A stretch of DNA of 64,000 bases from Bacteroidales bacterium (GTDB lineage Bacteria; Bacteroidota; Bacteroidia; Bacteroidales; UBA932): assembly GCA_017962375.1 (NCBI GenBank), contig JAGCVJ010000011.1, forward strand, positions 248,001 to 312,000, read 5' to 3'. Under the pieces are notes generated by a model. The model saw only the letters and a program-made list of their open reading frames with translations. It did no database searches and was not told the origin of the DNA. Position numbers and translations under genes: made by a program. Below, piece after piece: positions 5,089 to 51,285 of this stretch (position 1 is the first letter of the stretch; every line of letters starts with the position of its first letter).

Positions 5089-5805
5089 ATGGATAATGAC
5101 CAGCCTTTGTCGCCCAACAAGCAATTGGTTGAGGCGCTGAGCGGAAAATCGAATGTGAAAGCCCTTGTGTTTGACAGGGCTTTGGAAGTGTTCAACAACC
5201 TCAAGGAGCTTCTGGCAGAGATCAGCAACGACCTGGACGAGGCTCTGGATGAGATAAAGGATTCCGGCGTGGAGCTCAGCCGCCGTGTTAAACTTGAGTA
5301 CAGAGACAAGGGAAAGCTTGAGGCAGAAGTCAGGTTTGCAGACGACGTTCTGGTTTTCAGCCTTCTTCCGGACGTTTACCAGTTTGACGCCAAGCACTCT
5401 GTATGGAAGGCACCGTACGCCACCGCAGCTCCGTTCAACACTTACTGCGGCGTGATAACGGTTCACAACTTCCTGTACGAGTCAGTCAAGCTTAACCGCG
5501 AATGTGATCCGGGATACCTGGTTGCCAGGCTGTTCATAAACCGCGAAGGCTGCTTCTTTGTCGAAGGCAAGAACCAGCCTAGGAACAAGATAAGCCAGTT
5601 CGGTTCAGTAAAGCTGGACAAGAAGGAGATGAGAGACTTTGTGGAAAGCGCGATGCTTTATGCAATCAGCTTCGACCTTCTCGTACCTCCATTTGACAAT
5701 GTCAAGACGATAACTGTAGGCGACAAAGATTCAGACGACTACAGGATACCTACGGCTAAGCTGAACGGATTCGGCTATTCTTCAGACGATGTTCTGGGCG
5801 AATAG
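5089..5805 (+). CDS. Conserved hypothetical protein
   Basis: 238 residues, soluble, no signal peptide and no membrane segment. The first 70 residues are acidic and helical (LKELLAEISNDLDEALDEIKDSG), followed by a mixed alpha/beta region. I do not recognise a named domain. It lies between proS and a DUF3078 gene on the same strand with short gaps (40 and 21 nt), so it may be co-transcribed. Codon use is like its neighbours, so it looks like a resident gene. Confidence 0.75.
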   Translation: MDNDQPLSPNKQLVEALSGKSNVKALVFDRALEVFNNLKELLAEISNDLDEALDEIKDSGVELSRRVKLEYRDKGKLEAEVRFADDVLVFSLLPDVYQFDAKHSVWKAPYATAAPFNTYCGVITVHNFLYESVKLNRECDPGYLVARLFINREGCFFVEGKNQPRNKISQFGSVKLDKKEMRDFVESAMLYAISFDLLVPPFDNVKTITVGDKDSDDYRIPTAKLNGFGYSSDDVLGE

Positions 5806-45227: not shown

Positions 45228-45231
45228 TAAA

Positions 45232-45253
45232 AAAGCCTCCCGGCGGAGGCTTT
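45232..45253 (-). terminator. Original terminator of the nqr operon, now displaced by the integrated element
   Basis: AAAGCCTCC (45232-45240), CGGC loop, GGAGGCTTT (45245-45253). On the minus strand the stem is followed by six or more T. It sits about 30 nt beyond the remnant of the original nqrF stop at 45276-45278, so before insertion it ended the nqr transcript. Confidence 0.75.
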
Positions 45254-45284
45254 CTTAATCTTGCAACGCTTTGGCTAAGCGCCG

Positions 45285-45298
45285 AAGTTGTCGTACAT
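45285..45298. repeat. Left attachment core
   Basis: AAGTTGTCGTACAT, identical to 50054-50067. Identity extends with single mismatches to the left (CTAAGCGCCG here, CTATGCTCCA at the right copy), because both encode the same end of NqrF (Asp-Asn-Phe-Gly-Ala-stop on the complement). Confidence 0.88.
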
Positions 45299-45358
45299 TA
45301 GTTTGGTATATTTTTGTAAATTATTGATACTCAGTTAAAAAGCCCCGTAAGGATTTTT

Positions 45359-45382
45359 GCTAACTGACAAACGACTGACAAA
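45359..45382. repeat. Left arm-type integrase sites
   Basis: GCTAACTGACAAA (45359-45371) and ACTGACAAA (45374-45382) are directly repeated. The same 9-mer recurs twice near the right end, and GCTAACTGACAAA appears there inverted (49844-49856). This is the layout of arm-binding sites for a tyrosine integrase. Confidence 0.68.
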
Positions 45383-45461
45383 AACGGCCTTTTATCGTTC
45401 CTCTTGGGGCAAGTTTGGCTAATTCAAATTTGGTTTTGCAATACAAATATACAAAATATTC

Positions 45462-45800
45462 TCATTCAGTCCCATTAGCCTTTCTAATGTAATAAACGAC
45501 TTGCTCTAATAATTCCGTTGGAACAAGACTTAAATCGAGTTCCGGCTGTACTTCTTTCCGATTCAAATCTGCTCTTATGTCTCCAGTTATAGCCTGTTGT
45601 TTGGGTAGAACATATTGTAGTAGTTTCTCGTAAAAGTTTAGACGGGTTTTTGAATCTGCTTTTTTTAAGTCCTGTTGTACTTGTCTCCGATTCTTCTGTA
45701 AAATGTCGTTTATCCATTCCCGTAGGTCAGAAGTAACTTTGTTGGGGCTTCCTTTTGGCCTCCCATACGGGTTGCCGGTTTTACCTTTTATTTGTGCCAT
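45462..45800 (-). CDS. Small basic protein with GRPKGSPNK motif
   Basis: 112 residues. Starts MAQIKGKTGNPYGRPKGSPNK, the N-terminal motif of DUF5681-type and some terminase-small-subunit-like phage proteins; AT-hook-like GRPKGSP suggests DNA binding. The rest is helical (WINDILQKNRRQVQQDLKKAD) with an acidic C-terminal part. Last gene at the left end of the element, 33 nt after the replication protein gene. Role unknown. Confidence 0.62.
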   Translation of the reverse strand: MAQIKGKTGNPYGRPKGSPNKVTSDLREWINDILQKNRRQVQQDLKKADSKTRLNFYEKLLQYVLPKQQAITGDIRADLNRKEVQPELDLSLVPTELLEQVVYYIRKANGTE

Positions 45801-45833
45801 AATTGTCGATAAATATGTTTTTCAATGTTGTTT

Positions 45834-46751
45834 TCATTGGGCTAAACAAGTTTCTATAATTCTGTCTCGAAGTTCAGATAATAGCCCGTTCCCTGATTTG
45901 TATTGCTCGTTATAGAAGTTTGCAACCTCTTTTTTGAGCCTGTGTGCATTTGTGTTGCCTCTCTGTGTTTCCCTAAGCCACTCGCTGAGGTCGTTTGCAT
46001 TTACTCCAAATCTCTTTTGCAATACGAAAATGTATTGTAATAAAGTTTCCGTTTTCCCTTTTCCCTGTCTTATGGCTGAGGCCGTTTTGAAAAGGCTCTC
46101 AAAATACTTTCTCCATTGCTCCAATAGCCGTTTATAAACATTTTTGTTGCTGAGGTCTGATAATGTTCTTGTCGGTAGATAAGGCTTTATAGCCCCGTTT
46201 TTCAACTTCATTTCATAGCGTAATAGATTGTTTAGCCCTGTCGGTATATGTTCGTTTCTATGTTCCATTTCTAAAAGTTTATCATAAAATACGAGTTCTC
46301 GCTGCTCTGCTTTTTGTTTGTAGTAAAGAGTTGTTTTTCTTACAAGTTCTTTACTGAATCTTGGTAAATATCCGCTTGAGTTCAGTTGTTTAATGTACGC
46401 TGTCGGTTCATTTTCCATAACAAAAGCACTTCCAAACTCAAGCCTCTTAACTATCATTTTATCGGGAGTTATTCTAAATGTTCTGCAGAGTTTATTAATA
46501 GCGTCCTGTAAATCGTTCCAGTCCATAGTATTAAAATTGCTCCCTGTAAAAAACCTTGTTAGGCTTCCTGATATATTCAACCCTCGCTGAGTTATCGAAA
46601 CATTTAGCCCTCCGTACGAGCCTTTTTCGTAAACTTTAGTGCCGTCTGAATCAAATCCAGTAACCTTGTTTTGCAAATTCTCTGAGAGTTCATAAATAAC
46701 GGCTTCTGTTTCCCAGTCGGATAATATTCCCAATGCTATTCCGTCTATCAT
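45834..46751 (-). CDS. Phage/plasmid replication protein, gene II/X-like
   Basis: 305 residues. The pattern GLNVSITQRGLNISGSLTRF, FTGSNFNTMDWNDLQDAINK, and VKRLEFGSAFVM matches my recollection of the replication initiator family of filamentous phage gene II and related Bacteroidetes plasmid and phage proteins (Phage_CRI). The mid-region VFYDKLLEMEHRNEHIP and LLRYEMKLK is also typical. Such proteins nick a double-strand origin to start rolling-circle replication. It is preceded by a 170-nt gap containing a long inverted repeat that could be the origin. Assignment is by motif memory, moderate confidence. Confidence 0.55.
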   Translation of the reverse strand: MIDGIALGILSDWETEAVIYELSENLQNKVTGFDSDGTKVYEKGSYGGLNVSITQRGLNISGSLTRFFTGSNFNTMDWNDLQDAINKLCRTFRITPDKMIVKRLEFGSAFVMENEPTAYIKQLNSSGYLPRFSKELVRKTTLYYKQKAEQRELVFYDKLLEMEHRNEHIPTGLNNLLRYEMKLKNGAIKPYLPTRTLSDLSNKNVYKRLLEQWRKYFESLFKTASAIRQGKGKTETLLQYIFVLQKRFGVNANDLSEWLRETQRGNTNAHRLKKEVANFYNEQYKSGNGLLSELRDRIIETCLAQ

Positions 46752-46774
46752 AATGTAGTCTTGTTAGTTGTAAT

Positions 46775-46909
46775 AATGCCCGTTTTTTGCCGTTTAGCAT
46801 CTCAGTAGAGTCACTATATATTCAAACCTAACTCGTCAATAATGAAGTGTTTTTTACATTGTTATATAAGCCTGAAAATATAATTATGTTAAATAGAAAA
46901 ACGGGCATT
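46775..46909. repeat. 13-bp inverted repeat flanking the gap upstream of the replication gene
   Basis: AATGCCCGTTTTT (46775-46787) and AAAAACGGGCATT (46897-46909) are perfect reverse complements, 109 nt apart, in the gene-free stretch 46752-46921. It may be a replication origin, a regulator site pair, or a terminator for the 187-residue gene on one arm. Confidence 0.6.
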
Positions 46910-46921
46910 CCTTACATTTGG

Positions 46922-47485
46922 TTATTGAGTTAATTGAACACAGATTCCCTCCTGTTTCAATCGTTCTATTTCTGCATCGATTAAACCCAATGCAACAGCC
47001 TTACAATAGTCCTTTGCCCTTAGCCTTTCGTTTCTGATAATAGCAAAGTATATGACAGACGGAACATATAGCAAACAATCTTCATTTGCGTTGGTGTAGG
47101 CCACATATGCCCCAAACTTGAATAAATAAGCGTCTGCTCTGTGTGGGTGCATATAATTAAGTTTCCCGTCTTTACTTCGTTCCGACTGGCTTGCCTCCCC
47201 GTAGGCTGATATTTCCTGTAATTTCCACCCATCTTTAGTTAGCCACCTCAGCCCAGTTATATTCAGCCCTCCGACTCCCTGAAGATTAATAGCCGGAGCA
47301 TCGGGCTTATTGCTTCCTCTGTTGGGCTTATAGTAAAGATACCTCCTGCCTTTTCTCCCCCGATACTCTAATAATGGGCTGCTCCCTAAATATTTTTCAA
47401 GTATATAAGTAGGGGTTTTCTTTTCTGTTCCTGCTTCCAATACCCATTTTGAAATGAAAGCCAAATTTGAATATCTGCCAATCAT
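46922..47485 (-). CDS. Hypothetical protein of the integrated element
   Basis: 187 residues, not recognised. Basic and aromatic-rich (YRGRKGRRYLYYKPNRGSN), no signal peptide; the C-terminal segment YLFKFGAYVAYTNANED, then RAKDYCKAVALGLIDAEIERL, is helical. It starts 2 nt after the excisionase-like gene stop, so the two are translationally coupled. It might assist excision or replication by position, but there is no direct evidence. Confidence 0.6.
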   Translation of the reverse strand: MIGRYSNLAFISKWVLEAGTEKKTPTYILEKYLGSSPLLEYRGRKGRRYLYYKPNRGSNKPDAPAINLQGVGGLNITGLRWLTKDGWKLQEISAYGEASQSERSKDGKLNYMHPHRADAYLFKFGAYVAYTNANEDCLLYVPSVIYFAIIRNERLRAKDYCKAVALGLIDAEIERLKQEGICVQLTQ

Positions 47486-47487
47486 AA

Positions 47488-47769
47488 TTAAACCCTCCTA
47501 AAACTTATAGCCTTTGCTTCAAGTTCTGCATCTGTTGCAATACGATTTTGCAAAAGCCATTGTTCAACTTCGTTCTTGTCGAAATAGATTCCCTTTCCAC
47601 TTGGTTTATAGTGTGGTATTTTGTGCTTACAAGTGAGTTTGTATAGATAACTTCTGCTGAGGCCTGTAAGTATTGCCACATCTGAAAGCGTCAAGACTCG
47701 TTTAGTAGATAGAATAGAGTTTCGTTCTATCCTGTTTAATTGTTCCTGTATTGTGGAAAAATCTTCCAT
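47488..47769 (-). CDS. Excisionase-like helix-turn-helix protein
   Basis: 93 residues from the ATG at 47769, chosen over an upstream start at 47847 because MEDFSTIQEQLNRIERN is typical of Bacteroidetes Xis-like proteins. KRVLTLSDVAILTGLSRSYLYKLTCKHKIPHYKP is the winged-HTH (HTH_17/MerR-like) module, followed by GKGIYFDKNEVEQWLLQN. Such proteins direct the integrase toward excision. It is upstream of and coupled to the 187-residue gene. Confidence 0.8.
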   Translation of the reverse strand: MEDFSTIQEQLNRIERNSILSTKRVLTLSDVAILTGLSRSYLYKLTCKHKIPHYKPSGKGIYFDKNEVEQWLLQNRIATDAELEAKAISFRRV

Positions 47770-47884
47770 AACAATAAAATTTAGATTGTGGCCTTTTCGT
47801 GTAGGTTGGACGCTACACGATACTTTGCCAATACAAACAACCTCCAACTATGTTGTTTGCAAGAACAAAAGAAGATAATACGAG

Positions 47885-47920
47885 AAAAAAAAAACGGATA
47901 TGTTAATGAACATACCCGTT
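47885..47920 (-). terminator. Intrinsic terminator after the integrase operon
   Basis: On the minus strand AACGGGTATGTT, CATT loop, AACATATCCGTT, followed by ten T (47894-47885). It closes the integrase plus 237-residue-protein transcript and isolates it from the excisionase gene. Confidence 0.85.
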
Positions 47921-47960
47921 AATAATTGTCTAAGTTTTGAGTTACATCTGTTTGCTATTG

Positions 47961-48674
47961 TTAAGTATTAAGTCCTAATAACTTTTTATACTCGGTTTCT
48001 TTTTTGAGTTTATCCCAATTCTTAACTTTTTGTGCATAAGAAACGGCTAAATTCTTAATTCCCCAAAAAGGTTCAAAGATTTTCCAAACCTTTGTCTCTA
48101 AACAAAGTTCTTTGGCTAACACTAAAGCCAAAACAGCCTTTTCTCGATTTGTTTTCATTGTAGGTTGGTACAGAGACGAATCTAATAAGCCTACCTCAAC
48201 GGCTTTTGAGAATAAACGCTTAGCGTCTTCTGAAGCAAGGTCAGGAAAAGCAACTTTTAGATAATCGTTGTTAGTTGTTGCTATCATTCGTTTTAGTTTA
48301 TTGTAGATTTTTTCACGCTTAGCCTCCCGTTCTTGTATATACACAATTCTTTTTTCGTATTGCTCTATGGTTTCTCCACGAAAGTCTAATTGTAACGGGT
48401 TTTTGTTAATATATCGTAATTCCAAAAACAACTCCCTGATTTTGTCTCTTCTCTTTACAATGTCAATATAGTTTTTTGCTTCGTCAATCGTTTTAATATC
48501 CGGCCAATCCGGTGTGAAAAGAGAATCAACAAAGGCCGTAATTTCATAAATACTATAGTTGCTGTCAATGCTTTTTAACTTCTCTCTGACAGAAGCAATT
48601 AGTTTTTCTTTATTGTTGTTAGTGTATGCCTTGTAGTCTTCGTAGTCCTCAATATTGATTAGATTTCTTTCCAT
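47961..48674 (-). CDS. Hypothetical protein downstream of integrase
   Basis: 237 residues, not recognised. Highly charged and helical, no signal or membrane segment; resembles small cytosolic cargo proteins of Bacteroidetes elements (segment MKTNREKAVLALVLAKELCLETKVWKIFEPFWGIKNLA near the end, resembling uncharacterised proteins encoded beside integrases). It starts one nt after the integrase stop, so it is co-translated with it. A role in element maintenance or defence cannot be told from sequence. Confidence 0.6.
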   Translation of the reverse strand: MERNLINIEDYEDYKAYTNNNKEKLIASVREKLKSIDSNYSIYEITAFVDSLFTPDWPDIKTIDEAKNYIDIVKRRDKIRELFLELRYINKNPLQLDFRGETIEQYEKRIVYIQEREAKREKIYNKLKRMIATTNNDYLKVAFPDLASEDAKRLFSKAVEVGLLDSSLYQPTMKTNREKAVLALVLAKELCLETKVWKIFEPFWGIKNLAVSYAQKVKNWDKLKKETEYKKLLGLNT

Positions 48675-48675
48675 A

Positions 48676-49833
48676 TTATTTAATGCTCGGTATTAGATTA
48701 ACTGCCTTTCTCTTTGTCTCTGCCACTACCTTAGCGTAGATTTGAGTAGTGTTAATATTCTTGTGGCCTAAGAGTTCCTTTATTGTATATACATCTGCCC
48801 CGTAGGATAGGGCAAGAGTTGCAAATGTATGTCTTGCAGTATGGAAAGATATATGTTTCTCAAGTCCGGCTCTTTTACTCCAGTCTTGCAGAATATCCCA
48901 TACAATATCCACCCTTGCAAGATTGAATACAAGGCCGTTTTCAGGGGCTTTCTTTGGCTTGGTGGGTAGATACTCCAACGCAAAGACGGATAGCGGAACA
49001 AAGGCCGTTTCTTTGGTTTTCTGCATTGTTTTAACAACCTCCTTGCTCCCGTCCGGTAGCGTCTTTATGTCCTCCCACTTAAGCGTAACTATATCGGAAT
49101 ACCTCAGCCCCGTATAGCAAGAGAACAAAAAGGCGTTTTGTGTTTCCTTGTAGCGTTTTGTAGTGCCTCCGTATATTCTCGCTTTTGTATGTTGTAAGGT
49201 CTTTAATTCCTCAATAGTAAGGAATACTCTTTTGCTCTGTTCCTGTTTCGGGCGTTGTTTAGCGTCAAGCCTCCGGCTTGGGTTGTCCTTTATATATCCC
49301 TCTTTTACGGCTCGGTTTAAGGCAATAGCCACAACATCGTAATACAGGCTTTGACTATTGGCTGAAAGGGGCTTGCCGTATTTGTTCAAAGCCGTTTTAA
49401 GGTGTTCTATATATCCCTCTAAATATGCCTTGTCTATCTTGTTTAGCGGTCTGTCTCCGTAGGTCTTTACTTGTTTGATAGTGTTTCTTATTGAGGACTG
49501 GTAAGCCGTACTGCCTTGTTTTTGAAAACGCTCTCTTTCCTGTTGCAGCCAGTCGCTGAGGTATATTTTGCCCCTGCCTATTGGTCTAAAGCCCGTAGTT
49601 CCATTTTGTAGTTCGGTTATCCGTTGGGCTTTGACTGCTTGGGCAAGTCTTAGGGTTTCCTTGTTCCTGCCCTTGTCTGTGCTTTCGTGTTCGGGTATAA
49701 GATAAAGTTTAAGATACTCCCTTACACGCTTTCCGTTTAGGTTGTAGTCTAAATAAAGTGAAATATTCCCGTCTTTGATTTTCTGTTGTCTCAGTTTAAC
49801 GGGTTCTTTGGCCTTGTAGATTCGCTTTGCCAT
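48676..49833 (-). CDS. int: Tyrosine recombinase / integrase
   Basis: 385 residues. N-terminal arm-binding-type domain (KLRQQKIKDGNISLYLDYNL), core-binding SAM-like domain (about 100-190), then the catalytic domain with the Arg in FSCYTGLRYSDIVTLKWEDI, His-x-x-Arg in SFHTARHTFATLALSYGAD, His in LLGHKNINTTQIYAKV and the terminal Tyr in the same segment. All five key residues are seen. It is the Bacteroidetes ICE/phage-type integrase and lies next to the right end, as usual. Its promoter overlaps arm sites. Confidence 0.95.
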   Translation of the reverse strand: MAKRIYKAKEPVKLRQQKIKDGNISLYLDYNLNGKRVREYLKLYLIPEHESTDKGRNKETLRLAQAVKAQRITELQNGTTGFRPIGRGKIYLSDWLQQERERFQKQGSTAYQSSIRNTIKQVKTYGDRPLNKIDKAYLEGYIEHLKTALNKYGKPLSANSQSLYYDVVAIALNRAVKEGYIKDNPSRRLDAKQRPKQEQSKRVFLTIEELKTLQHTKARIYGGTTKRYKETQNAFLFSCYTGLRYSDIVTLKWEDIKTLPDGSKEVVKTMQKTKETAFVPLSVFALEYLPTKPKKAPENGLVFNLARVDIVWDILQDWSKRAGLEKHISFHTARHTFATLALSYGADVYTIKELLGHKNINTTQIYAKVVAETKRKAVNLIPSIK

Positions 49834-49843
49834 AGTCTTTTTA

Positions 49844-49903
49844 TTTGTCAGTTAGCACCGACAAATATACAACTTTAATGCAAACTGACAAAATACTGAC
49901 AAA
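49844..49903. repeat. Right arm-type integrase sites
   Basis: TTTGTCAGTTAGC (49844-49856, inverted relative to the left 13-mer), then ACTGACAAA at 49884-49892 and 49895-49903, directly repeated and spaced 11 nt apart like the left pair (15 nt start to start there). Confidence 0.65.
49862..49892 (-). promoter_or_regulatory. Integrase promoter overlapping an arm site
   Basis: On the minus strand TTTG (49892-49889), a 19-nt spacer, TATATTTG (49869-49862). The -33 TTTG is part of the ACTGACAAA arm site at 49884-49892, so integrase bound there should block its own promoter. Confidence 0.65.
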
Positions 49904-49970
49904 ATATTGTCCGTTATTTATCCGTCAAAAAGAAAACAACCTCAGCAAAGGTCAGAATAAGTAAAACAAG

Positions 49971-49995
49971 AAAGCCCCTCAAATAGAGGGGCTTT
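49971..49995 (-). terminator. Element-borne terminator serving the nqr operon
   Basis: AAAGCCCCTC (49971-49980), AAATA, GAGGGGCTTT (49986-49995). It lies 48 nt past the nqrF stop on the minus strand, so it replaces the original terminator now at 45232-45253. It is nearly symmetrical and could work both ways. Confidence 0.8.
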
Positions 49996-50043
49996 CCTTA
50001 ACTATTAGTTGGAGTTTGTTTTCTCTTGTTTTACCCTGAGAAA

Positions 50044-51285
50044 CTATGCTCCAAAGTTGTCGTACATGATGTTGTCCGGCTGAACGCCCAGGTTGTCCAG
50101 CATGTTGACAGCAGCGCTGGTCATCATAGGAGGGCCGCAGAGGTAGTATTCGATGTCCTCAGGAGCAGGATGGTTCTTCAGGTAGTTGTCAAACAGAACC
50201 TGGTGGATGAAGCCGGTAGGGCCTGTCCAGTTGTCCTCAGGCAGAGCGTCTGAAAGGGCCACGTTGTAGGAGAAGTTCGGGTTCTCCCTTGCAATCTCTG
50301 CAAAGTCTTCGTCGTAGAACATCTCTCTGCGTGAGCGGGCACCGTACCAGAAGCTGACCTTTCTCTTGGTGTGCAAGGTCTTGAACAGGTGGAAGATGTG
50401 GCTTCTCATAGGGGCCATTCCGGCACCACCGCCGATAAATACGATCTCGTTGTCGGTATCCTTGATGAAGAATTCTCCGTAAGGGCCGCTGATGGTGATC
50501 TTGTCTCCTGGCTTGAGGGAGTAGATGTAAGAAGAGCAGATGCCCGGATTTACCGGAACCCACTGCTTCTTTGCCCTGTCGAACGGAGGAGTTGCAATAC
50601 GCACGTTCAGCATGATGATGTTGCCCTCTGCAGGGTGGTTGGCCATTGAGTAGGCTCTGAAGGTTGGGGTAGGGTTGACCATCTTCAGGCCGAAGATTCC
50701 CATCTTCTCCCAGTCTCCGCGATACTCAGGCTCAACCTCTATGTTCTTGTAGTCCACCTCGCAGGCAGGAACGTCTATCTGGATGTAGCCGCCGCTGCGG
50801 AAGTTTACGTTCTCGCCCTCAGGCAGCTTGACAACAAACTCCTTGATGAATGTGGCCACGTTGTGGTTGCTTACCACTGTGCACTCCCACTTCTTCACTC
50901 CGAGAACTTCCGGAGGAAGCAGAATGCCCAGGTTCTCCTTTACCTTCACCTGGCAGCCGAGCCTCCAGTTGGAGAGCTGCTCCTTGCGGGAAAAGAAGCC
51001 CACCTCGGTAGGGAGGATGGTTCCGCCTCCGGTAACTACCTGGCACTTGCACATGCCGCAGTTGCCTTTTCCGCCGCAGGCAGAAGGCAGGAATATCTTG
51101 TTGTCGGCCAGGGTGGAAAGCAGAGTTCCGCCGGTTGCCACCTCAAGCTGTTTTTCGCCGTTGTTGATGTCAATGGTGACATTTCCTGAAGGAAGGAGCT
51201 TGGCCTTTGCAAAAAGCAGAAGGGCTACAAGCAGAAGGGTGATGATCAGGAATACGATTATTGAAGTCAAAATTACTGTACTCAT
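50044..51285 (-). CDS. nqrF: Na+-translocating NADH:quinone reductase subunit F
   Basis: 413 residues. One N-terminal membrane helix (about 5-25), a 2Fe-2S ferredoxin domain ([12 protein letters not shown] near residue 70, with C-x5-C-x2-C), an FAD-binding domain ([12 protein letters not shown]) and an NADH-binding domain ([15 protein letters not shown]). It oxidises NADH and passes electrons into the Nqr complex. The last codons (GGA GCA TAG) and terminator come from the integrated element; the encoded end (MYDNFGA) is the same as that of the displaced original. A strong SD (aggaggaga) precedes the start. Confidence 0.96.
50054..50067. repeat. Right attachment core within nqrF
   Basis: AAGTTGTCGTACAT at the end of the nqrF coding sequence; matches 45285-45298 exactly. 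It encodes the Met-Tyr-Asp-Asn-Phe region on the complement. Confidence 0.88.

What the first reader, a model, noticed from the sequence alone, without database searches (positions are those of the whole stretch)
45285..50067. Compact integrative element that targets the last codons of nqrF and repairs the gene
Seen: 14-bp direct repeats bound a 4.77-kb insertion with a tyrosine integrase. The left junction holds the old end of nqrF (complement of Gly-Ala-stop, codons GGC GCT TAG) and the right junction a replaced end with synonymous codons (GGA GCA TAG). Both read Asp-Asn-Phe-Gly-Ala-stop. Tyrosine integrases often use tRNA ends and rebuild them; using a conserved protein-coding 3' end of a respiratory enzyme is an analogue. 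Nqr is important for energy conservation, so disruption would be selected against. Novelty of nqrF as a site is my inference; I cannot search for prior reports.
Basis: partly seen in the sequence, partly recalled or inferred. Interest (0 to 1): 0.75.

Follow-up and report, generated by a model that had tools for sequence, protein, structure and literature searches.

The report
Integrative element at the nqrF end
A 4.77-kb DNA element in a Bacteroidales bacterium sits inside the last codons of the respiratory gene nqrF and carries a replacement for them, so that the enzyme's protein sequence is unchanged; it was likely inserted by its own integrase, a known kind of trick at a target gene for which our searches found no earlier report.

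Summary
A 14-bp direct repeat (ATGTACGACAACTT in nqrF sense) at 45285-45298 and 50054-50067 bounds a 4769-bp insertion. Two closely related genomes have the empty site, with the displaced nqrF end (TTC GGC GCT or GCC TAG) running into the old terminator and glutamine synthetase; the element supplies TTT GGA GCA TAG plus its own terminator. Another genome carries a 73%-identical integrase at the same place.

The element has six genes: tyrosine integrase, unknown, excisionase-like HTH, unknown, rolling-circle replication initiator (PF05144; pT181-type predicted fold), DUF5681. Related Rep elements in the same family often use tRNA 3' ends (9 of 17 examined). The window's integrase belongs instead to a clade whose mapped members (14 of 26) sit at ends of conserved protein genes: ychF 3', lepA 5', obgE 5', nqrF 3'. 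Rep and integrase trees disagree, so integration modules were probably swapped between backbones.

Using conserved protein-gene ends and rebuilding them is well known (guaA, trmE, rpsI; 43.4% of islands in one census lie in coding sequence). nqrF as site, and this target series, look new: my paper searches found none. Excision, transfer and circular form are untested. Verdict: new member of a known kind.

The parts
45285..45298 (-). attachment core, left copy (start of the displaced old end of nqrF)
   Evidence: exact 14-bp direct repeat with 50054-50067; continues as in the empty site of G026
45275..45284 (-). displaced old nqrF end after the core (C GGC GCT TAG)
   Evidence: matches the G026 empty site base for base
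45228..45257 (-). old nqrF terminator hairpin, now separated from nqrF by the element
   Evidence: inverted repeat I16, terminator-like scan hit 45232-45253, scored on the plus strand; the like hairpin follows nqrF directly in G016 and G026
45299..50053 (.). integrated element between the two core copies (unit of 4769 bp with one core)
45363..45382 (+). two ACTGACAAA repeats, 11 bp apart: candidate integrase arm-type sites, left end
   Evidence: 5 exact copies in 64 kb against 0.66 expected, 0 of 100 shuffles with 5; all five lie at the element's two ends. The 10-base form with one mismatch gives 6 against 5.6 expected, so the signal rests on the exact 9-mer and its clustering
45462..45800 (-). 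DUF5681 protein, 112 aa
   Evidence: Pfam PF18932, 28.3 bits, cut-off 27.5
45834..46751 (-). rolling-circle replication initiator (Rep), 305 aa
46922..47485 (-). conserved protein of unknown function, 187 aa
   Evidence: no family hit; 7 homologues at 55-62% besides itself; relatives next to rep in 4 of 20 related loci
47488..47769 (-). excisionase-like helix-turn-helix protein, 93 aa
   Evidence: HTH_17 44.8 bits, cut-off 27; TIGR01764 39.5 bits, cut-off 28.8
47961..48674 (-). protein of unknown function, 237 aa
   Evidence: no family over cut-off; weak relatives between int and xis in 3 of 20 related loci
48676..49833 (-). tyrosine integrase, 385 aa, with arm-binding, SAM-like core-binding and catalytic domains
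   Evidence: PF17293, PF13102, PF00589 all over cut-off; 73% identical relative at the same site in G031
49844..49903 (.). three ACTGACAAA copies (49844-49852 minus; 49884-49892 and 49895-49903 plus): candidate arm-type sites, right end
   Evidence: 26-bp repeat D6 88% identical to the left end
49968..49998 (-). terminator hairpin supplied by the element, between restored nqrF stop and int
   Evidence: 13-pair stem with T-rich tail; by reading, hairpin-like sequences lie in the same place in ychF and lepA elements
50054..50067 (-). attachment core, right copy, inside nqrF (codons Met-Tyr-Asp-Asn and TT of Phe)
50044..51285 (-). nqrF, 413 aa, with element-supplied last bases (TT)T GGA GCA TAG
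   Evidence: TIGR01941 644.9 bits, cut-off 295; F411 aligns with V. cholerae F406

Best explanation
This is a 4769-bp integrative element lying between two copies of a 14-bp core at the 3' end of nqrF; its own tyrosine integrase likely recombined that core with the identical stretch in nqrF and in doing so would have replaced the gene's last 10 bases (third base of Phe411, Gly412, Ala413 and stop) by synonymous ones. Shown: the repeats, the empty site in two relatives, the unchanged protein end, the genes, and a related integrase at the same site in another genome. Inferred: the excisionase-like HTH protein helps excision; ACTGACAAA repeats are the integrase's arm sites; the element-borne terminator separates nqrF transcription from int; after excision the Rep protein nicks the circle and copies it by rolling circle, and may also act as the relaxase when a helper conjugates it. 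The likely reason for the repair is that the C-terminal Phe (Phe406 in Vibrio cholerae) sits at the flavin and affects NADH binding, so an altered end would probably disturb the sodium pump; this has not been tested here.
For: Exact repeat and the two nqrF ends. Empty sites in G026 and G016; the window's left flank matches G026 at 232 of the first 250 bases from the core, and glutamine synthetase follows at +134. In 40 nqrF loci of 39 genomes (34 of this genus, 5 of the family; 343 bases to 17.5 kb downstream of nqrF seen) only G031 has a relative of this integrase; a 41st locus, G006, has none in 5.2 kb. G031's new end, GGTGCATAGTTTCTCAGGGTAAA, is nearly that of the window. Integrase domains, excisionase-like protein, Rep family and fold, clustered candidate arm sites. 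The backbone int-xis-rep recurs: Rep in 21 of 398 genomes of the family, this one included; 9 of 17 elements examined have repeats overlapping tRNA 3' ends, spacing 4.6-6.7 kb. Same synonymous displaced end at ychF in L157: CACTTCCTCTTTAACGTTTGA near int against CATTTCCTCTTCAATGTATAA 7.7 kb beyond the int start, both His-Phe-Leu-Phe-Asn-Val-stop. Phe406: PMC10643135 and PMC10739449, passages.
Against: No circular form seen: the expected junction gave 0 matches in viral contigs, a weak test. No strain of the same species with and without the element was available; the empty sites are in other genomes of the genus, one per species. No conjugation coupling gene TraG (TIGR03783) in this 87%-complete genome, and over cut-off in only 3 of 39 genus members, so no helper is shown. 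The nqrF element is rare: 2 genomes. The window's Rep is distant from the Reps of the tRNA elements (26% at best). G031's element beyond int is cut off by its contig end, G031 is not among the 21 genomes with a Rep match, and the 187-aa protein was not found in it. On the reason for repair: in PMC10643135 the F406A variant bound NADH productively, so loss of this residue need not abolish function.
Confidence: 0.85

Rival explanations
1. The element is a satellite of a filamentous or other phage: the G2P-like Rep makes single strands that a helper phage packages, and conjugation plays no part.
For: Rep falls in PF05144, described as the N-terminal part of the replication protein G2P (that G2P is of filamentous phages is recalled); no canonical mobilization gene matched.
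Against: No coat, Zot or assembly gene matched in the six proteins; Zot (PF05707) at E 4e-4 in 1 of 39 genus members and not in this genome; no Rep match in 50,697 phage records or, with close-relative patterns, in viral contigs. The predicted Rep fold is closest to plasmid pT181-type RepDE.
Confidence: 0.15
2. The insertion is real but dead: an old, immobile remnant whose genes no longer work.
For: Rare at nqrF (2 genomes); no circular junction found.
Against: All six reading frames are open; the integrase has all three domains and keeps the stretches TGLRYSD, RHTFATL, LGHKN and IYAK shared with its 73% relative (that these hold the catalytic residues is recalled); core copies are still identical.
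Confidence: 0.12
3. The arrangement is an assembly or binning artefact that joins an element to the nqr operon.
For: The genome is a draft in 18 contigs, 87% complete.
Against: Both flanks continue as the empty site of relatives predicts; the contig is 354 kb; another genome has the same kind of junction.
Confidence: 0.02

Closest known systems
Tyrosine-integrase genomic islands and IMEs at 3' ends of housekeeping protein genes (guaA islands, SGI1 at trmE, IMESag-rpsI, IMEs at rplL and rpmE)
   Same: Integrase module at one end, short direct repeat that holds the gene's end, unchanged or nearly unchanged protein, some with a rolling-circle Rep_Trans protein (PMC5704250, passages and table rows)
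   Different: nqrF is not among the table rows I saw; host is Bacteroidales; no canonical relaxase matched
Bacteroidota IMEs NBU1, NBU2, MTnPi4
   Same: Integrative elements of Bacteroidota with tyrosine integrases (PMC5704250, passages)
   Different: NBU1 and MTnPi4 use tRNA-Leu 3' ends and NBU1/NBU2 encode MobP relaxases; this element has a PF05144 Rep instead
MobT/Rep_Trans elements (ICEBs1, Tn916, streptococcal IMEs)
   Same: Rolling-circle initiator related to plasmid Rep_Trans proteins, which there serves for both replication and transfer (PMC5704250, passages)
   Different: No conjugation genes matched here; PF05144 family, dual role untested
The Rep elements of this bacterial family at tRNA-Arg(ccg) and tRNA-Leu 3' ends (L135, L136, L137, L139, L142, L143, L144, L146, L149) and at lepA 5' (L138, L145)
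   Same: Order int - xis - rep, similar size; in 6 of the 9 tRNA users a paired arm-like repeat recurs at both ends
   Different: The tRNA users have integrases of another clade (100/100)

Membership tests
Site-specific integrative element restoring a protein-gene 3' end | element-coded integrase next to one junction | tested here: met
Site-specific integrative element restoring a protein-gene 3' end | direct repeat made of the target gene's end at both junctions | tested here: met
Site-specific integrative element restoring a protein-gene 3' end | empty site in relatives | tested here: met
   G026 and G016
Site-specific integrative element restoring a protein-gene 3' end | same target used by a related integrase elsewhere | tested here: met
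   G031, 73% identity, (one case)
Site-specific integrative element restoring a protein-gene 3' end | excision to a circle and re-integration | not testable with these tools
   needs cells or reads; the junction pattern gave 0 hits in viral contigs
Integrative and mobilizable element (IME) | relaxase or mobilization protein | tested here: inconclusive
   no canonical relaxase matched; Rep of a fold whose relatives serve as relaxase in other elements (PMC5704250, passages)
Integrative and mobilizable element (IME) | transfer with a helper conjugative element | not testable with these tools
   no TraG in this genome, over cut-off in 3 of 39 of the genus
PF05144 rolling-circle initiators | profile match over the curated cut-off | tested here: met
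   39.3 bits, cut-off 21.7
pT181-type / Rep_trans initiators | fold of RepDE | tested here: met
pT181-type / Rep_trans initiators | nicking activity through a catalytic Tyr | not testable with these tools
   Tyr156 in FYDK is invariant in 10 aligned rows; its role is my guess
Filamentous phage or its satellite | coat and assembly (Zot) genes (a satellite may lack them) | tested here: not met
   none matched in the six proteins

The most novel reading that the evidence does not exclude
One integrase clade of Bacteroidales has repeatedly moved to new targets at the ends of conserved, functionally critical protein genes (nqrF 3', ychF 3', lepA 5', obgE 5'), and these integration modules jump between unrelated backbones, including minimal 5-kb rolling-circle elements; at 5' sites the element even gives the GTPase gene a new start and probably a new promoter, so such elements could control host energy metabolism and ribosome GTPases by excising.
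Probability: 0.3. Interest if true: 0.6.

Novelty: new member of a known kind. Interest (0 to 1): 0.42.

Why it matters
It adds a respiratory sodium-pump gene to the list of landing sites and shows, through matched empty and filled sites, how an element can cut into the conserved end of an enzyme without changing the protein. The integrase clade with four mapped protein-gene targets is a natural series for asking how tyrosine integrases change target, and its members could become tools for site-specific insertion in Bacteroidales.

Tried and rejected
Looked for more nqrF insertions. Family sample of 398 genomes: 70 genomes with integrase relatives at E <= 1e-40; of the 30 integrase loci fetched there, only the window and G031 have nqrF within the 1.5-kb flanks (at most 4 candidates per genome were scored). 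Order sample of 393 genomes: 17 with matches at E <= 1e-70, this one included; none of the 20 non-window loci lies at nqrF. Viral contigs: Rep gave no relative, int gave 5 distant loci without nqrF, the two nqrF integrases together gave none, two junction patterns gave 0. Genome contigs gave 6 loci, of which only L032 (= G031) has nqrF. Rep had no match in plasmid or phage records. What lies between nqrF and glutamine synthetase in other genus members (L041-L043, L046, L049, L050) reads as lipoprotein-like or unidentified frames, with no second strict core. Defence cargo: only weak HTH hits in PADLOC for the excisionase-like protein. The 187-aa protein's model had pLDDT 65 and was not searched.

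Unresolved, and against a clean story: targets of 5 of 17 Rep elements (L140, L147, L150, L152, L154). In the 26-row integrase group 14 rows are mapped and 12 are not (L159, L160, L164, L165, L168, L169, L171, L172, L173, L174, and the Rep elements L140 and L147): that the clade uses protein genes rests on its mapped members only. For L158 (ychF) no second gene end was found in 23.8 kb beyond int, and in L156 the ychF end next to int reads HFLLFKG instead of HFLFNV, so repair there is not exact. The obgE tblastn hits to the start peptide are short and weak alone (E 0.01-0.3). Rows for the trees were my choice: the 37-row integrase tree holds 20 of the stretches, 15 Rep elements and the two nqrF integrases; L151 and L154 were left out, and L144, L150 and L152 as well in the 13-row comparison. 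Mageeney 2020 on gene-integrity sites is not held, so its target lists were not checked; nor was the TIGER database itself.
Full report
WHAT IS THERE. In the window, nqrF (50044-51285, minus strand; TIGR01941 644.9 bits against a cut-off of 295) is followed by a 4769-bp unit bounded by two exact copies of ATGTACGACAACTT (nqrF sense), at 45285-45298 and 50054-50067. In nqrF sense the right junction reads ATG TAC GAC AAC TTT GGA GCA TAG TTTCTCAGGG and the left junction ATG TAC GAC AAC TTC GGC GCT TAG CCAAAGCG. So the core covers Met407 to Asn410 and two bases of Phe411; the element supplies the third base of Phe411, Gly412, Ala413 and the stop. Both ends code for the same peptide.

EMPTY AND FILLED SITES. 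Of 100 genomes searched for nqrF (this one and 99 relatives), 95 had a match at E <= 0.001, some of them only to remote flavoproteins. I fetched 40 nqrF loci from 39 relatives (34 of this genus, 5 of the family), and later one more, G006. Of the other genus members G004 had no match, and G012 and G037 have contigs that end at or shortly after nqrF. G026 and G016, whose NqrF is 99% identical, carry the uninterrupted site followed by a like terminator hairpin and by glutamine synthetase at +134. G026 has the very bases GGCGCTTAG of the window's displaced end; G016 differs by one synonymous base. From the core onward the window's left flank and G026 agree in 232 of 250 bases, and the 300 bases before the core agree in 271. 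Of the 41 loci one, G031 (record JAFYZX010000027.1, a Bacteroidales MAG from water buffalo omasum), has a relative of the integrase behind nqrF; it is 73% identical, starts 213 bases after the aligned end of nqrF, and sits behind a new end GGTGCATAGTTTCTCAGGGTAAA almost equal to the window's. Its contig stops 69 bases after the matched end of int. The exact core occurs in 9 of the 40 nqrF loci and with at most one mismatch in 18 of 40, so the site is common in close kin and fades with distance.

THE WIDER FAMILY. Rep relatives occur in 21 of 398 genomes of the bacterial family, this one included. In the 20 other loci, xis-like genes lie beside rep in 19 and an integrase was found in 17, one of them weak and distant (L151). 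Of 17 elements examined for repeats, window included, 9 have a repeat overlapping the 3' end of tRNA-Arg(ccg) or a tRNA-Leu gene, 2 lie at the 5' end of lepA (L138 with a 23-bp repeat; L145 with a displaced MNSIRNFCIIAH start), 1 is the nqrF case, and 5 were not resolved; a further Rep element, L141, borders lepA but its integrase is not on the contig.

THE INTEGRASE CLADE. In a tree of 37 integrases that I picked, the window and G031 pair at 100/100 inside a 26-row group (100/100) that excludes an 11-row group: the 9 integrases mapped to tRNA genes and 2 unmapped ones of Rep elements. Mapped members of the 26-row group, 14 in all: two at nqrF 3'; four at the 3' end of ychF, of which three show a second, displaced end 7.6-7.7 kb beyond the int start; two at lepA 5'; and six of a seven-row subgroup at obgE 5' (an ObgE-like start such as MPDSNFIDYVKL before int, against MPNTDFVDYVKLH in this genome's ObgE; weak tblastn hits in 5 of 7, the sixth, L170, by reading, L172 none). 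For G121 an intact obgE lies about 22.6 kb from int, computed from the coordinates of L176. The other 12 rows are unmapped. The ychF element L155 has different cargo; the Rep profile found no Rep in it.

MODULE EXCHANGE. On 13 elements with both genes, the five whose integrases belong to the 26-row clade form one group in the integrase tree (100/100), but holding their Reps together is rejected (log-likelihood 149 lower, p-AU 5e-62), and so is holding the nqrF and two lepA Reps together (p-AU 0.003; the window's Rep is a long branch, so this second test is weaker). In a wider tree of 26 Reps the lepA Reps lie among Reps of tRNA elements (82/98), apart from the window's Rep, which groups with P0002-P0006 (96/86). 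The simplest reading is that integration modules have moved between Rep backbones.

WHY REPAIR MATTERS. Phe411 of this NqrF aligns with Phe406 of V. cholerae. Passages of PMC10643135 call F406 important for binding of NADH and show it between nicotinamide and flavin in the isolated subunit, from where it must move for hydride transfer; the F406A variant bound NADH productively. PMC10739449 (passages) speaks of a critical role in NAD+ release and names the matching Phe421 in Prevotella bryantii. So the cut falls at a functionally studied residue; that an unrepaired end would be selected against is an inference, and the F406A result shows that loss of the side chain does not stop NADH binding.

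WHAT IS KNOWN. The review PMC5704250 (passages and table rows) states that most IMEs with a single tyrosine recombinase use sites such as 3' ends of tRNA and housekeeping protein genes, more rarely 5' ends, without disrupting them, and lists guaA, rplL, rpmE, rpmG, rpsI, trmE and yicC. PMC4701971 (passages) reports the same for streptococcal ICEs, including rbgA, ftsK and ebfC 5' ends, and frequent module exchange. PMC12424338 (whole text) counts 43.4% of 1.75 million islands in protein-coding sequence. So the kind is known. Searches for nqrF with integrase and attachment site (0 papers), nqrF with genomic island (5 papers, of which one, on Chlamydia suis, was read in passages and concerns vector integration and homologous recombination near nqrF), nqr with Bacteroidales elements (3 papers listed, none holding nqr), ychF (15 of 108 papers listed, none of the 15 holding ychF), lepA (5 papers, listing only) and obgE (0) gave no earlier report of these targets; most subscription papers and the TIGER table itself were not searched.

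VERDICT. The finding is real and correctly read; it is a new target and a compact backbone within a known kind. The most interesting extension is the target-switching integrase clade. Excision, replication mode, transfer and helper are untested; no TraG in this genome and Zot in 1 of 39 genus members leave the route open.

Noticed in passing
L138 (G413), int at 5166, lepA from 10357; L145 (G404); L141 (G233): Rep elements at the 5' end of lepA: in L138 lepA now starts MLQTHIRNFCIIAH while an old start (MKHIRNFCIIAK) stays behind at the far side, so lepA's first codons and upstream region are replaced.
   Followed up: partly
L161, L162, L163, L166, L167, L170, L176: A subgroup of related integrases sits after an ObgE-like start peptide, pointing to obgE 5' ends as a target; in G121 intact obgE is about 22.6 kb away.
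   Followed up: partly
L155-L158: Elements with related integrases at the 3' end of ychF leave displaced HFLFNV ends in three of four, the same pattern as nqrF; in L156 the ychF end beside int is altered to HFLLFKG.
   Followed up: partly
L090, L099, L102, L198, L201, L202, L210: Several loci have two tyrosine integrase genes of this family in tandem, as PMC5704250 reports for Prevotella MTnPi1-3.
   Followed up: no
L146 and L150: Two genomes (G178, G399) carry Rep elements with identical integrase sequences, suggesting recent movement.
   Followed up: no
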